NCBI RefSeq assembly: GCF_013365535.1
Contig: NZ_CP053590.1
Coordinates: 3,214,501-3,278,500, forward strand
Reading direction: 5' to 3'
Source: Aquimarina sp. TRL1
GTDB lineage: Bacteria > Bacteroidota > Bacteroidia > Flavobacteriales > Flavobacteriaceae
Length of the DNA: 64,000 nt
In this document: positions 45,481 through 58,907 of the stretch, in pieces
Layout of the letters: each line of letters begins with the position of its first letter
How positions within the stretch are numbered: the stretch's first letter is position 1
Notes under the pieces: model-generated
Databases searched by the model: none
The model's input: only the letters and a program-made list of their open reading frames with translations
What the model was told of the DNA's origin: nothing
Program-made: the position numbers and the translations under genes

Positions 45481-46284
45481 ATGAATAATAAAGAAAAAGC
45501 AAAGGCTTATCATACAGCCGTTAGTGCATACGATGTATCGACAATAGAAAAAATGGTTGAAGAAAATTACATTCAACATAATCCAAAAGTTCCATCAGGA
45601 AGGGCAGCATTTGTCTCCATGATTCCTACATTAAAAATGCATGGTAGCAAAATAGAAAACATTCGGATGATGGAAGATAATGATCATATTATCATGCATC
45701 ATAAGTGGGTCAATGCGGCTCCATTTGGTTTTGAAGCGTCAGTGGCTTTTCATATTATAAGGTTTGATAGCCAGGGTTTTATTGCAGAACACTGGAATGT
45801 GATGACAGGAATTGCACCCTTGAATGCTTCTAAAAGATCCTTATTTGACGGGGAGACAACAATTACGGATATAGAGAACACAGAAAGTAATAAGGCAATC
45901 ATTGCAAAACTGATCAATCAGATGATACACGATGATGTTGAAGAGATTACCACTACTGTGATTCCTCGATATTTTCAGGAAGAATTCCACCAGCATAATG
46001 CAATGATATCTGATGGAATTCAAGGGCTAACGGATGCCATTCAACAAGGAGTATATGTCCCTCGTTATAAAAAACAGCAAGCTGTTTTCGGAGAGGGAAA
46101 TTTTGTCCTTTCTATTAGTGAGGGAATACTTTCACAAAAAAATACAGCATTGTACGATCTATTTAGATTGGATAATGCAAAGATTGTAGAACATTGGAGT
46201 ATCTATCAGGAAATCCCAACGACTGATTTGGCGAATACGAATACGATGTTTAATTTTCAACATAGGTTTCAACCAAGTTTTTGA
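45481..46284 (+). CDS. Double SnoaL-like (NTF2-fold) protein
   Basis: 267 residues from ATG 45481. Two tandem SnoaL-like domains of about 125 residues: the first with YHTAVSAYDVSTIEKMVEENYIQHNPKVPSG and ending FIAEHWNVMTG; the second with MIHDDVEEITTTVIPRYFQEEFHQHNAMISDG and ending IVEHWSIYQEIP. SnoaL-type proteins are cyclases, hydrolases or hydroxylases in secondary metabolism, or orphan enzymes. Its 3' end overlaps that of the FAD monooxygenase by 35 bases in convergent orientation. It may be a tailoring enzyme of the isonitrile cluster, but it is on the other strand and this is only positional. Confidence 0.8.
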   Translation: MNNKEKAKAYHTAVSAYDVSTIEKMVEENYIQHNPKVPSGRAAFVSMIPTLKMHGSKIENIRMMEDNDHIIMHHKWVNAAPFGFEASVAFHIIRFDSQGFIAEHWNVMTGIAPLNASKRSLFDGETTITDIENTESNKAIIAKLINQMIHDDVEEITTTVIPRYFQEEFHQHNAMISDGIQGLTDAIQQGVYVPRYKKQQAVFGEGNFVLSISEGILSQKNTALYDLFRLDNAKIVEHWSIYQEIPTTDLANTNTMFNFQHRFQPSF

Positions 46285-47707
46285 GTAAGGATTCCGCTTC
46301 CCCGATAGGGGCAACAGCCTCGATATAAGCGTCTGGCCTTACAATAACAATCTGATTTTTATAGTAATCCTCTTTAGTCCAGTATTCGTGCTGTGTTTCA
46401 TTAGGGCGAACCTGCAATATGGTTACGAAATCAGGAACCGTTATAGCGGGTACATAATCACCAAAACACAACAAGGTGAATTTTGTATACTCCAGAAGGG
46501 AGTATAATCGCATACTTTTCTTCTCTTTGTGTATTGTAAGGTCATATACTCTTGTACCGGCACATCCGGATTCACTATAACGGATTCCCATCCCGGTAAT
46601 ATTTCCTGCCCTTTTTTCTACAATTTTTACATAATCCTTGGCATGTGTTCCGTCATCGGAATATTTAGTAGACCGGACAAGTTCCCCGGAACTTTCGATA
46701 ACACTTAGTGCGACAGGCTTTCTTTCATTTTCATAGGTACGCAGCAGGTTTTGGTTTGTTCCGTGGTTTTTTATCATGTTTAATTTCCAGATCAGATTAA
46801 AAGCATCTGCTAAACCGGTATTAAGCCCTTGTCCTCCATTTACGGAATGGATATGACAAGCGTCTCCGGCAAGAATAACACGATCTTGAAAAAGAAAATG
46901 TTCTGCAACTGATTCTTTTACCGAAAATTGAGAAAACCATACAAGTTTTTTAATCTTAACATAGTGTGGAGCCATAGCAAGATTGATTCTTTTCAGCGCA
47001 TCCTCCATATCGAAATCTTTGCGATCCATTCTAATATAAAACCGGTCAATTTCCCCTTCTCTGGGAATCCAGGCAACATCTGATGTTTCAGACTGGAAGA
47101 CGATTATCTCTGGTACTTTTGGGAAATCAGTTTCGAATACGGCATCAATTACAGCCCATATAATTTGGGGGCGTGTAATTTCAAAAGGAATCTTAAAGTG
47201 ATTTCTGACAAAAGAACGAGAACCATCTGCTCCGATGAGGTATGTTGATTTAATAATATCACCATTGGTAAGTGTACTGGTACATCCATGAGCTGTAAGT
47301 TGGATGTCTTCTATAGTTGTTTTTCTTATTACAGCGGCATCAATTGCAGTAAGCTTTTTATCTAAGAGCTGTTCTACAAACGCTTGCCCAAGCATTAGAA
47401 AATGTTTGTGAAAGCACCCCTGGAGTTCATTCCACCAGGAAGACTGTCGGGATATAAACTTTCCTTTTTCCCAAACGGAACTTGTATTACATGGAAGCCC
47501 CAAAGGATAGAGATCCTGGAATAAATTAGCTACTTCGAGTAGTTGTAATGTTCTGGCATTAAGGGCATCAGCTCTTCCTACTTCCAAAGGTCCTTCCGAT
47601 TTATCAATAATAATAGTTTTTAGCCCTGAAATTTCTGCCAGATAAGCACATAATAAACCTACTGGACCAGCGCCTATAATAAAGATATCTGTTTCTCTTG
47701 TCTTCAT
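46250..47707 (-). CDS. FAD-dependent aromatic monooxygenase of the isonitrile cluster
   Basis: 485 residues. Class A flavoprotein hydroxylase (PheA/TfdB type): FAD-binding IIGAGPVGLL (10-19), the GADGSR motif (about 167-172) and VILAGDACHIHSVNGGQGLNTGLADA (about 285-310). The C-terminal about 100 residues match the thioredoxin-like tail of this class without active cysteines. Such enzymes hydroxylate phenols with NAD(P)H and oxygen. Its ATG overlaps the stop of the PvcB-like gene by 4 bases, so it belongs to the same operon. In Pseudomonas pvc clusters the corresponding oxidising step uses a different, HpaB-like PvcC, so the product here may differ. Confidence 0.88.
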   Translation of the reverse strand: MKTRETDIFIIGAGPVGLLCAYLAEISGLKTIIIDKSEGPLEVGRADALNARTLQLLEVANLFQDLYPLGLPCNTSSVWEKGKFISRQSSWWNELQGCFHKHFLMLGQAFVEQLLDKKLTAIDAAVIRKTTIEDIQLTAHGCTSTLTNGDIIKSTYLIGADGSRSFVRNHFKIPFEITRPQIIWAVIDAVFETDFPKVPEIIVFQSETSDVAWIPREGEIDRFYIRMDRKDFDMEDALKRINLAMAPHYVKIKKLVWFSQFSVKESVAEHFLFQDRVILAGDACHIHSVNGGQGLNTGLADAFNLIWKLNMIKNHGTNQNLLRTYENERKPVALSVIESSGELVRSTKYSDDGTHAKDYVKIVEKRAGNITGMGIRYSESGCAGTRVYDLTIHKEKKSMRLYSLLEYTKFTLLCFGDYVPAITVPDFVTILQVRPNETQHEYWTKEDYYKNQIVIVRPDAYIEAVAPIGEAESLLKNLVETYVEN

Positions 47708-48540
47708 TTCGTATAGATTAAATGCGGATTATCTAATGGAGTTTTTCCTAATAACTGCACACGTCTGATATGTCTGGGAGCTCCTTTAAGGAAGGGTTCT
47801 CTACCGTGTAACAATGTGTGATTATCAGAAAATACAATATCTCCTGTCTGCCATTGATGCGTATAAAGGTTTTCTGGTGCGTAGAGTGTTTTATTGAGGT
47901 CCTGAATGAAATCGTCTATTTCTTGGCTGGGAATTCCCTCTATGGCAAAACCAGGATGATTGATAAACGACGCATCTGTTGTATTCGGAGGTTCGCAATA
48001 CCGGATTACAGAAAAATCCCTTTCAGGGTGTTTTGTCAGGATAGGGGCAATGGTTTTACTGTCATAAAATTCCATTTTTCGAGAGTAAATACAGGTAATT
48101 TTATTCCAGTATTCCAGGGTTTCTTTTTTAGTTTTTTCCAGAACTTGTTTTGTGTTGACAAATGTAGTTCCCCCACCATTATTGCTTCCAGGGGCACTTA
48201 CACAATGGAACACCTGAGTTTCGGGAACCTGTTCTCGATACATTCCATCCCAGTGAAGAGGAATATAGCTATTATCAAAAATATGATCTTTAGGGTTATC
48301 ATGTTCGATGAGTTCTAATACTTTGCCAAAAGGCCATACACTGATTTCTCCAAATGTTTCGCAGTAATTAGAAAAATCAGTTGCCGTATCAAAGCTATGA
48401 AAACCTCTCAAAGCGAGGAGGTGTTCATCAGATAATGCTTTTTTTAGCTCGTTAATATCGATATTTCTAATGTCCTCTTTCCCAGGGACTGGTTCTATTA
48501 AGAGACCGAACGGACGTAATTTTGTGATGTTAAAATTCAT
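47704..48540 (-). CDS. isnB: PvcB/IsnB-like Fe(II)/2-oxoglutarate oxygenase (TauD family)
   Basis: 278 residues. TauD-type jelly roll; iron ligands His96 and Asp98 in LHWDGMY and His245 (or 241) in DNHTLLHGREPF, with Arg259/260 in IRRVQLLGK for 2-oxoglutarate. The sequence GGGTTFVNTKQVL and PGSNNG region are typical of PvcB relatives. PvcB/IsnB act on the amino-acid isonitrile, desaturating or decarboxylating it to a vinyl isonitrile. It lies 24 bases after the isocyanide synthase, the standard pair. Symbol given by homologous arrangement. Confidence 0.87.
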   Translation of the reverse strand: MNFNITKLRPFGLLIEPVPGKEDIRNIDINELKKALSDEHLLALRGFHSFDTATDFSNYCETFGEISVWPFGKVLELIEHDNPKDHIFDNSYIPLHWDGMYREQVPETQVFHCVSAPGSNNGGGTTFVNTKQVLEKTKKETLEYWNKITCIYSRKMEFYDSKTIAPILTKHPERDFSVIRYCEPPNTTDASFINHPGFAIEGIPSQEIDDFIQDLNKTLYAPENLYTHQWQTGDIVFSDNHTLLHGREPFLKGAPRHIRRVQLLGKTPLDNPHLIYTK

Positions 48541-48564
48541 GATGCATTTTTTTATGTTGAGGTA

Positions 48565-49599
48565 TTATAGCTCATAAGTGAGCTGTTGGTTTTGGGAGAT
48601 TAGTTTGTAGTGACTAGGACGCCCTTTTTCATCCTTAATTAATTGGGCATTTAATTCTTTGACCTCCCGATGTTTCATTAAAATAAAATTATTCCCTGTG
48701 TTTACCGCTACTCCATGCCAGGGAGTCATCCATGTTTCTATTCCGAGAAGTTGAATTCCGATTTTTCTGGAACCACAGCTCTGAGGGTGGATGGATAGGC
48801 GAATTGCCTCCGGGAATTTTTCTGCGATTAAATCTGTCCAGGCATTACTTCTTATAATTGCTAAGTACGCTCTTGATTTACACTCTTTTTGAATTGCACT
48901 TTTTGATTTAGTCTGCCCAGGAAAAAGTGAGTCTTCTACAAGAAAACGTGTTAAACCGCAATACAGTCGATTTGCTTCCCTCTCTTCAGGAGTACTAGAT
49001 CCGGTTACATCCCCTCCTCTTTTTACTTTTTCTTTTAGGCGTTCCAGATCTTGACCATATTTTCCTATAAGCTCTGAGCGAGCTTGTTCGAAATTGCAAT
49101 CGTGGTATACATCATCAAGATTAAAAGTAGAAAGAGATGTAAGATTTGATTCTTTAATGATGCGATCGATTTCGATTTGATAACTTGTAATGTGCTTCTC
49201 AGCAATCCCTACAACATCACTAAAGACTCTACCATCAGAACAAATAATAACTTCAGCACCAGGAGTATATATACTTTGAATGCGTTTACAGAGGTTGTTT
49301 AGGAATGTTAGTGCTTGCTTTTCTGCCATATCAGGAAGATGACCTAAGACTTTTGCCGGGTTGGGGGATTTGCCAGGAAATGCAGGAAGAACGAATCTGA
49401 TCTTTTTTTCTTGCATGATGGCAGCAATAACTTTGTCAATATGAGGTTTATGGCAGTCTGAACACGTAGTAGAGTCACATTTTTTTTCGGTATCGATCAT
49501 TCGTCGAAATTGCATAACTTCTGTTAGTATATTCGTAGCAATATCAGCTATTTGTTGATCAGAACTAGGTTTCCCTAATTCATTGGTTAAGATTTTCAT
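48565..49599 (-). CDS. isnA: Isocyanide synthase, PvcA/IsnA family
   Basis: 344 residues. Diagnostic segment RFVLPAFPGKSPNPAKVLGHLPDMAE (about 68-93, with KSPN), YTPGAEVIICSDGRVFSDVVG (about 111-131) and the C-terminal SIHPQSCGSRKIGIQLL and TPWHGVAVN. An N-terminal Cys cluster C-x4-C-x2-C (about 41-49) is seen as in many family members. The enzyme converts the amino group of an amino acid (Tyr or Trp) to an isonitrile with ribulose 5-phosphate as carbon donor. First gene of the operon isnA / isnB / FAD monooxygenase. This is a strong family call; the amino-acid substrate is not determined. Confidence 0.93.
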   Translation of the reverse strand: MKILTNELGKPSSDQQIADIATNILTEVMQFRRMIDTEKKCDSTTCSDCHKPHIDKVIAAIMQEKKIRFVLPAFPGKSPNPAKVLGHLPDMAEKQALTFLNNLCKRIQSIYTPGAEVIICSDGRVFSDVVGIAEKHITSYQIEIDRIIKESNLTSLSTFNLDDVYHDCNFEQARSELIGKYGQDLERLKEKVKRGGDVTGSSTPEEREANRLYCGLTRFLVEDSLFPGQTKSKSAIQKECKSRAYLAIIRSNAWTDLIAEKFPEAIRLSIHPQSCGSRKIGIQLLGIETWMTPWHGVAVNTGNNFILMKHREVKELNAQLIKDEKGRPSHYKLISQNQQLTYEL

Positions 49600-57737: not shown

Positions 57738-58907
57738 TTATACGTTCTTATGAGCAATGGTTGTATCAATATTATATACAGTTAGCATCTGTTGTTGCAT
57801 CATCTTCTGAGGGGTATATTTTAGGATGAAATTGCGCAGGATTTCCAGAGGTCTGTTTGTGATTGCCATTCTGGATGTGTTCCAGGATTGTTTGACTAAT
57901 CTTTCTACTTTGGGTTTTCTAAAGGTGTAAAATGTATCAAAAGCATCTTCTGTTTTTGGGATACCATGGATAAAATTAGAAAGGTAGAAAGCATCTTCAA
58001 TGGCCTGAGCACCTCCTTGTCCCAAATCAGGAGTCATACTATGTGCAGCGTCTCCAATAAGGCAGATGTTTTGATAATGCCATCGTTCCAGTAAGTTCAG
58101 ATCGAATAGGTCATTTCTCATTATTTTTTCTAAAGGCGTATTGTCGATTAGAGTGTTGACAATCGGATGGAATTCCGAAAATAACGTTGTTAATGTGTTT
58201 TTCAGGGTATGAAGATTGTCTTTTTGTTGCATTTTACTACGTCTGACGGCAAACCAATATACTTTTCCATTTTCTAGTTTAGACATCCCGAATTGTAGCT
58301 TTTTTCCCCATAAGGTACATCCAATGTTGGTAAGTGATATATCCAGGTCATAATTAGCGATCCCTCTCCAACAGGTCTGTCCGGTATATCTCAAAGTACT
58401 GCCTGGGAATAGCTGTTTCCTGAGGGTAGAATTGATCCCATCAGCCCCGATAAGGAAGCGAGTTTTTACAGTGGATTTATCTGTAAATGTTATGGTTATG
58501 TGGTCTCTGTACGATTCGTATTTTTTGAGGGTTTTATTTAGTACGATGTTTTCTTTGGTTGCATAGTCATAGAGGATTTTTTGTAGTTTTCCTCTGTGAA
58601 TTGCCATGGTGGTATATCCGTATTTTTGTAAGGCAAACTGTTGATTACTATCTGAGATAGGGCGGAGATTATGGTCTGTTACTCGAATACTGTCGAATGC
58701 ATTTCCGGAAGATTGTACCGCCTGTAGTAATTTGGGATCAATCCATTCGAGTACTTGCAAGGCATTTGGTGATAACCAAATGCCCGCTCCAACTTCTTTT
58801 AAAACTGCAGCTCTTTCATAAAGTACATAAGGGATGTTTAATTTTTCAAAACAAATAGCTGTTACGATTCCTCCTATTCCCCCTCCAATAATTGTTATAG
58901 AATTCAT
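57738..58907 (-). CDS. FAD-dependent monooxygenase (salicylate hydroxylase-like)
   Basis: 389 residues, class A flavoprotein hydroxylase: ITIIGGGIGGIVTAI (4-18), GAGIWLSPNALQVLE, GADGINSTLRKQLFP (about 157-171) and ICLIGDAAHSMTPDLGQGGAQAIEDA (about 280-305). Such proteins add one oxygen to aromatic or related substrates using NAD(P)H. The stop of the DUF6463 gene is 29 bases upstream of its start; with that gene and the Crp-type regulator it may form a small unit. Similar architecture to the enzyme at 46250 but a different subfamily (shorter, no thioredoxin-like tail). Confidence 0.88.
   Translation of the reverse strand: MNSITIIGGGIGGIVTAICFEKLNIPYVLYERAAVLKEVGAGIWLSPNALQVLEWIDPKLLQAVQSSGNAFDSIRVTDHNLRPISDSNQQFALQKYGYTTMAIHRGKLQKILYDYATKENIVLNKTLKKYESYRDHITITFTDKSTVKTRFLIGADGINSTLRKQLFPGSTLRYTGQTCWRGIANYDLDISLTNIGCTLWGKKLQFGMSKLENGKVYWFAVRRSKMQQKDNLHTLKNTLTTLFSEFHPIVNTLIDNTPLEKIMRNDLFDLNLLERWHYQNICLIGDAAHSMTPDLGQGGAQAIEDAFYLSNFIHGIPKTEDAFDTFYTFRKPKVERLVKQSWNTSRMAITNRPLEILRNFILKYTPQKMMQQQMLTVYNIDTTIAHKNV

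What the first reader, a model, noticed from the sequence alone, without database searches (positions are those of the whole stretch)
45481..49599. Isonitrile biosynthesis cluster with a PheA/TfdB-type monooxygenase and double SnoaL protein
isnA and isnB homologues are followed, with a 4-base overlap, by a class A FAD aromatic hydroxylase rather than the HpaB-like PvcC of Pseudomonas, and a convergent double SnoaL protein ends on it with a 35-base overlap. The combination suggests a hydroxylated aryl vinyl isonitrile or a rearranged product. Isonitriles chelate metals and inhibit enzymes, so a role in competition or metal capture is possible.
Basis: partly seen in the sequence, partly recalled or inferred. 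Interest (0 to 1): 0.78.

Follow-up and report, generated by a model that had tools for sequence, protein, structure and literature searches.

The report
Isonitrile operon with phenol-hydroxylase-type partner
A marine bacterium carries a small gene set that should turn tyrosine into a reactive isonitrile and then add a hydroxyl group to its ring; the same three-gene core turns up in distantly related bacteria, and our paper searches found no description of its product.

Summary
In detail: isnA (48565-49599), isnB (47704-48540) and a class A FAD monooxygenase, FMO (46250-47707), lie on the minus strand; isnB and FMO overlap by 4 bp, and a convergent double SnoaL protein (45481-46284) overlaps FMO by 35 bp. 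The trio is widespread: of 80 FMO loci kept from a species-genome scan, 77 have isnB on the same strand and three are cut at a contig end. They bear eight phylum-level labels. The FMO keeps D54/R281/Y289 of phenol hydroxylase as D47/R216/Y224, so I predict ortho-hydroxylation of a tyrosine-derived aryl isonitrile, replacing PvcC by an unrelated enzyme. In 43 isnA loci of the Bdellovibrionota, FMO accompanies only IsnBs with Arg107; 13 of the 17 others have a P450. SnoaL goes with IsnB Cys188 (11 of 12 against 3 of 62), an ATP-grasp ligase only with non-Cys188, though tree-corrected tests lack power. The window's IsnB (R107, C188) mixes the published vinyl-isonitrile and isocyanoacrylate signatures, so the exact product is open. 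No product, expression or function was tested.

The parts
48565..49599 (-). isnA: L-tyrosine (inferred) isonitrile synthase, PF05141
   Evidence: PF05141 1.5e-76; nearest solved structures PvcA 3e59 2.4e-77 and 9dh4 9.2e-72; single copy in the genome
47704..48540 (-). isnB: Fe/2OG desaturase of the PvcB/IsnB type; HWD and LLHGRE metal-ligand stretches aligned; R at PIsnB position 107, C at 188
   Evidence: TauD 3e-43; PvcB 3eat 7.8e-83, PIsnB 7tcl 2.7e-66 with alignment; residues
46250..47707 (-). FMO: class A FAD monooxygenase, phenol-hydroxylase group, NCBIfam PRK07190.1
   Evidence: PRK07190.1 847.9 bits, cut-off 530; aligns to VibO, 3-hydroxybenzoate hydroxylase, phenol hydroxylase; D47/R216/Y224 conserved; model matches TvMNX3, VibO, phenol hydroxylase at TM 0.80-0.84
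47704..47707 (-). 4-bp isnB stop/FMO start overlap, same in 66 of 81 rows
45481..46284 (+). SnoaL-like protein with two NTF2-type halves, convergent with FMO
   Evidence: PF07366 4e-10, PF12680 7.5e-9; AlphaFold model pLDDT 95.2; fold matches
46250..46284 (.). 35-bp overlap of the 3' ends of the convergent SnoaL and FMO genes
   Evidence: a 37-bp convergent overlap of the same two genes is in L108 (5207-5243)

Best explanation
The locus is a small isonitrile biosynthesis operon. IsnA joins the amino nitrogen of tyrosine to a carbon of ribulose 5-phosphate; IsnB desaturates the side chain; the FMO uses FAD, a reduced nicotinamide and O2 to hydroxylate the phenol ring ortho to the hydroxyl, giving a catechol-type aryl isonitrile. 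Pseudomonas aeruginosa is thought to use the unrelated flavoenzyme PvcC for such a step (recalled). The SnoaL protein acts after the FMO on the oxidised intermediate (isomerisation, cyclisation or water addition; which one is not known). Shown: the four genes, their families, their conserved association, and the conserved catalytic-type residues. Inferred: tyrosine as substrate, the order of steps, ortho position, catechol product, action of SnoaL.
For: Families. IsnA chemistry: abstract of PMC7949033 as seen in a search listing. Trio conserved under eight phylum-level labels with a 4-bp isnB-FMO overlap in 66 of 81 rows. FMO residues aligned to D54, R281, Y289 of phenol hydroxylase 1foh (that these three are catalytic there is recalled, from no call): D47 in 79 of 81 with 2 gaps, R216 and Y224 in 81 of 81. 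Fold nearest to hydroquinone/phenol hydroxylases and VibO. In Bdellovibrionota the FMO accompanies 25 of 26 isnA loci with an R107 IsnB (the other contig ends in isnB) and 0 of 17 others. SnoaL is near FMO in 13 of 81 rows, in both orientations. A phenol-hydroxylase-type enzyme argues for a phenol, hence tyrosine rather than tryptophan (inference).
Against: IsnA scores 311 bits against the 600-bit cut-off of the NCBIfam tyrosine isonitrile synthase model, so tyrosine is not certified. FMO is 485 residues against 664-665 of phenol hydroxylase and scores under the phenol 2-monooxygenase cut-off (178.6 against 560). VibO, its best PDB sequence hit, is titled an oxepinone-forming enzyme, so simple hydroxylation is not assured. 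Structural matches at 21-26% identity do not give regiochemistry.
Confidence: 0.6

Rival explanations
1. Coumarin-type reading: IsnB of this branch keeps the carboxylate (PvcB-like isocyanoacrylate), FMO hydroxylates the ring, and SnoaL isomerises and lactonises it, giving a paerucumarin-like cyclic isonitrile by non-homologous enzymes.
For: IsnB has C188 as in PvcB, and PvcB is its best PDB hit (281 against 227 bits). C188 goes with SnoaL: 11 of 12 SnoaL rows against 3 of 62 others, 74 scorable of 81; new locus L108 fits. SnoaL-type proteins include polyketide cyclases (one search hits).
Against: R107 is the vinyl-isonitrile (PIsnB) type, not Leu. PMC9467999 (section 12) reports that K113L or N194C singly did not change the product of PIsnB-Ah. 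L053 has SnoaL with N188. Independent-pair tests have only 1-2 well-supported pairs and cannot reach significance.
Confidence: 0.25
2. FMO epoxidises or dearomatises the aryl vinyl isonitrile and SnoaL opens the epoxide or rearranges the ring, giving a non-aromatic product.
For: The Foldseek matches of SnoaL over both domains are polyether epoxide hydrolases Lsd19 and MonBI/MonBII (ranks 1-8); VibO, the best PDB sequence hit of FMO, forms an oxepinone according to its PDB title.
Against: These two-domain matches have TM 0.36-0.37 and rmsd about 15-16, so the two halves do not superpose together. The D/R/Y set and fold are those of phenol hydroxylases.
Confidence: 0.15
3. SnoaL is only a neighbour: the pathway is isnA-isnB-FMO and SnoaL does something else.
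For: 68 of 81 rows have no SnoaL hit on the locus, a few of them cut short; in the window it is on the opposite strand.
Against: All seven rows of the window's own FMO clade (window, L002, L003, L004, L005, L073, L100) carry it within 0.9 kb of FMO, in both orientations; in L025, L053, L075 it overlaps FMO on the same strand by 4-17 bp. It is unlike the one other hit in this genome (28% over 124 residues).
Confidence: 0.12

Closest known systems
pvcABCD operon of Pseudomonas aeruginosa (paerucumarin)
   Same: PvcA- and PvcB-type first two enzymes in one operon with further tailoring genes (operon structure: PMC3639982, passages seen)
   Different: The third enzyme here is a class A FAD monooxygenase; PvcC is an HpaB-type enzyme (recalled). 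A PvcD homologue was not searched for. IsnB has R107 where PvcB has Leu
Rhabduscin/byelyankacin-type isnAB (PIsnB)
   Same: isnAB core; R/K at position 107 of IsnB
   Different: C188 instead of N/H; FMO and SnoaL instead of glycosyltransferase (glycosylation recalled)
Legionella isnAB cluster with HTH protein and P450 (PMC5126622, passages seen)
   Same: isnAB with one oxygenase and a regulator
   Different: P450 in place of FMO. Of 13 loci titled Legionella in our scan, 12 show regulator-isnA-isnB-FMO (isnA of L063 split; L014 fused to the next gene) and one (L056) is cut, so the FMO kind exists in that genus too
Phenol hydroxylase (1foh), 3-hydroxybenzoate hydroxylase (2dkh), VibO (7yj0)
   Same: FAD fold and D/R/Y residue set
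   Different: 485 residues, short C-terminal part; conserved neighbour of isnAB

Membership tests
DIT1_PvcA isonitrile synthases | PF05141 above gathering score | tested here: met
   257.9 bits against 26.4
NCBIfam TyIsonSynPvcA (tyrosine isonitrile synthase equivalog) | score over 600 bits | tested here: not met
   311 bits
PIsnB type (vinyl isonitrile former) | K/R at 107 | tested here: met
   R (rule PMC9467999 section 12)
PIsnB type (vinyl isonitrile former) | N/H at 188 | tested here: not met
   C
PvcB type (isocyanoacrylate former) | L at 107 | tested here: not met
   R
PvcB type (isocyanoacrylate former) | C at 188 | tested here: met
   C
NCBIfam PRK07190.1 'FAD-binding protein' | score over 530 bits | tested here: met
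   847.9 bits, residues 1-479; the model's name gives no function
Phenol hydroxylase group of class A FMOs | D54/R281/Y289 equivalents (roles recalled) | tested here: met
   D47/R216/Y224
Phenol 2-monooxygenase (PRK08294.1) | score over 560 bits | tested here: not met
   178.6 bits
Phenol hydroxylase group of class A FMOs | ortho-hydroxylation of a phenol | not testable with these tools
   needs enzyme assay
SnoaL/NTF2 superfamily | PF07366 or PF12680 above cut-off and NTF2 fold | tested here: met
Polyether epoxide hydrolases (Lsd19/MonB) | same two-domain arrangement | tested here: inconclusive
   TM 0.36-0.37, rmsd about 15-16

The most novel reading that the evidence does not exclude
The isnA-isnB-FMO core is an undescribed, widespread branch of isonitrile biosynthesis whose IsnB chemistry and tailoring genes co-evolve: Cys188 with SnoaL gives a carboxylate-retaining or cyclised isonitrile, non-Cys188 with an ATP-grasp ligase gives an aminoacylated or otherwise ligated one. 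Each would be a new product class, made by enzymes unrelated to PvcC/PvcD.
Probability: 0.3. Interest if true: 0.72.

Novelty: new variant of a known kind. Interest (0 to 1): 0.52.

Why it matters
Isonitriles bind metals and inhibit enzymes, but few bacterial products of isnAB operons are known. A three-gene core found under the labels Bacteroidota, Pseudomonadota, Bdellovibrionota, Melainabacteria/Cyanobacteriota, Myxococcota, Planctomycetota and Actinomycetota, with no product found in the papers searched, is small enough to express whole. It also offers a natural experiment on IsnB selectivity: residue 188 varies with the downstream tailoring gene, which makes the open question of what decides vinyl isonitrile against isocyanoacrylate directly testable.

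Tried and rejected
1. FMO as a stand-alone detoxification or degradation enzyme: judged unlikely, because among the 80 loci kept of 88 it was not seen without isnB except on cut contigs; more distant FMOs were not surveyed.

2. A phylogeny-corrected test of SnoaL against C188: the FMO tree needs 5 (SnoaL) and 7 (C188) changes, but only 1-2 independent pairs lie on well-supported branches, so no significance can be reached. The Fisher p of 1e-9 ignores relatedness, and the correlation was noticed before it was tested. A concatenated tree (67 of 81 rows; the rest lack a regular isnA or isnB, or have one split) gives 4 changes for C188 and 5 for SnoaL, with weak deep branches and a warning about L072/L075. 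Counter-examples: L053 (SnoaL, N188), L037 (C188, no SnoaL near, and none in its genome by this query), L065 and L077 (L107/C188, no SnoaL beside the operon; the genome of L077 has a weaker one elsewhere, 88 bits).

3. Same-contig-length matching of listed IsnB and SnoaL proteins: 11 of 52 C188 against 1 of 45 others with contigs of 3 kb or more. Insensitive: only the best 120 of 4708 SnoaL hits are listed, and the pair in L043 (contig 1210554) is missed. It overlaps the genome set.

4. Promoter and terminator scan: about as many sites as in shuffles (25 against 21.1, sd 4.8; 4 against 3.3); a promoter-word count in L083 was no better (6 against a mean of 3.6). Active-site geometry of the FMO model was not measured (no coordinates to hand; pLDDT 77.6). 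A third fold job was not used.

5. Ten paper searches listed no paper on isnAB with this FMO. Searches had 14,970, 556 and 2,179 papers of which only 20, 30 and 15 were listed. The library lacks most subscription papers; Brady et al. 2007, an isnA survey, was not seen.
Full report
What is there. On the minus strand, isnA (48565-49599), isnB (47704-48540) and a class A FAD monooxygenase, FMO (46250-47707), run in one direction; isnB and FMO share 4 bp. A SnoaL-like gene (45481-46284, plus strand) converges on FMO and shares 35 bp with it. Families: DIT1_PvcA, TauD, FAD_binding_3, SnoaL. The FMO belongs to NCBIfam PRK07190.1, an equivalog model named only 'FAD-binding protein' (847.9 bits, cut-off 530). 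isnA is single-copy in the 5.4 Mb genome. The genus is probably Aquimarina: IsnA contigs of several 'same genus' genomes have the lengths of named Aquimarina contigs.

Distribution near home. PF05141 is in 2 of 299 genomes of the family sample and 10 of 66 of the genus, the window's genome counted in both. Of these ten, six carry isnA-isnB-FMO. Two (L097, L098) have a divergent isnAB followed by a tryptophan-halogenase-like flavoprotein and a HAD phosphatase (Pfam on L097 only); a third, L089, shows the same IsnA/IsnB scores but was not read further. One (L096) has isnA and isnB fused in a 593-residue frame with a HAD phosphatase next to it. So the pathway is patchy and its third enzyme is exchanged within one genus.

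The trio elsewhere. A scan of a collection of 84,980 species genomes with an alignment of 18 FMOs (A1) gave 101 pattern matches, 88 confirmed relatives, 80 kept. 77 of the 80 have isnB on the same strand; L056, L079 and L081 are cut at the contig end. For 81 rows (79 of these loci, L014 dropped, plus L100 and the window): 68 have a regular isnA on the locus; seven Vibrio/Marinomonas rows have instead a long IsnA-like protein after FMO; six have none, five of them cut contigs and one (L067) not. The isnB-FMO offset is -4 bp in 66 of 81; 2218 bp with two genes between in L065; 3 cannot be scored. Labels over the 81: Pseudomonadota 36, Bdellovibrionota 23, Bacteroidota 7 (plus L100 of the same genus), Actinomycetota 4, Melainabacteria 3, Myxococcota 2, Planctomycetota 1, Cyanobacteriota 1, none 3 with the window. 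Labels follow record titles: L012, labelled Myxococcota, falls in the Bdellovibrionota survey below (its contig length recurs in L111). The FMO tree does not follow these labels (15 changes, least possible 7), which fits transfer, though paralogy and bins are not excluded.

A control on the association. PF05141 occurs in 43 of 368 genomes of the phylum of G365, a Bdellovibrionia bin. One locus for each of the 43 was read (a second fragment in G606 was not). 26 have an IsnB with Arg at position 107: 25 of these have the FMO, and the other (L131) is a 3.4-kb contig ending in isnB. The other 17 (15 with a different residue, 2 without readable IsnB) have no FMO; 13 of the 17 have a P450 within 24 bp of the isn genes; the four without are L134, L139 (contigs end), L142 and L146 (Pfam confirmed the P450 in L133 and L109). 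No FMO-type locus had such a P450 within 3 kb. So two IsnB lineages use two unrelated oxygenases. About 20 of the 25 FMO loci are also in the scan. PMC5126622 (passages seen) reports the P450 kind in Legionella; our scan shows the FMO kind in that genus too.

What the FMO does. Its nearest solved relatives are VibO, 3-hydroxybenzoate hydroxylase and phenol hydroxylase. D47, R216 and Y224 align with D54, R281 and Y289 of 1foh (numbering checked; their catalytic role is recalled). Over 81 rows: D 79 with 2 gaps, R 81, Y 81. The model (pLDDT 77.6) matches hydroquinone hydroxylase TvMNX3, VibO and phenol hydroxylase at TM 0.80-0.84. Ortho-hydroxylation of a para-substituted phenol is thus the likeliest reaction, and it points to tyrosine. 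It would replace PvcC by an unrelated enzyme (PvcC's family is recalled).

IsnB and the tailoring genes. PMC9467999 (sections 4, 7, 12 read) gives K/R107 with N/H188 for vinyl isonitrile and L107 with C188 for isocyanoacrylate, and warns that single swaps in one enzyme changed nothing. The window has R107 and C188. Over 81 rows: RN 55, RC 12, RG 3, RA 2, RS 2, LC 2, MN 1, one with 107 missing, 3 without IsnB. SnoaL near FMO goes with C188: 11 of 12 rows with SnoaL, 3 of 62 without (74 scorable; dropped L015, L024, L056, L069, L079, L080, L081 for contig ends or missing isnB). An ATP-grasp ligase follows in 22 of the 74, all non-C188 and none with SnoaL; counting L036, whose frame overlaps FMO, and rows not scorable, it is in 25 of 81, again none C188. 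Its NCBIfam subfamily is PRK07206.1, next best dapdiamide A synthase (one member scanned). L108, found later in the Bdellovibrionota survey, is C188 with a convergent SnoaL overlapping FMO by 37 bp. L014 is a 900-residue frame holding both FMO and ATP-grasp, a natural fusion that ties the two, unless it is an assembly error. The association is suggestive, not proven: relatedness leaves too few independent pairs.

Verdict. It is a new variant of a known kind, widespread and without a product in the ten paper searches made. Product, substrate and role remain inference.

Noticed in passing
L014:8001-10703 (Legionella steigerwaltii): FMO and the ATP-grasp ligase lie in one 900-residue open frame (731 and 747 bits), a natural fusion linking the two enzymes.
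   Followed up: partly
L097:9689-10369, L098, L003, L004, L005, L073, L100, L096, L057/L118, L117, L036/L132: A HAD phosphatase recurs within 2.5 kb of isn genes of different types; it might clear the sugar-phosphate left by IsnA. The window has none by this query; the genome's best copy is 45% identical at C1:786638.
   Followed up: partly
L097:7782-9566, L098:6703-8487: In other genomes of the same genus a tryptophan-halogenase-like flavoprotein takes the third position after a divergent isnAB.
   Followed up: partly
L096:6815-8596 and L006:9657-11504: IsnA fused to a TauD-type domain, strong in L096 (134.9 bits) and weak in the Vibrio protein (26.6 bits, under the cut-off), which follows isnB-FMO.
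   Followed up: no
L065:6875-7558: A DJ-1/PfpI-like protein lies between isnAB and FMO in Pseudomonas haemolytica (no model over its cut-off); isonitrile hydratase is of that superfamily (recalled).
   Followed up: no
window 57738-58907 (-): A second FAD_binding_3 monooxygenase of 389 aa, about 8 kb from isnA, next to a DUF6463 gene.
   Followed up: no
L109:9151-11519: In one locus of the P450 branch (L109), isnA-isnB-P450 is followed by a UDP-glycosyltransferase-like gene.
   Followed up: no
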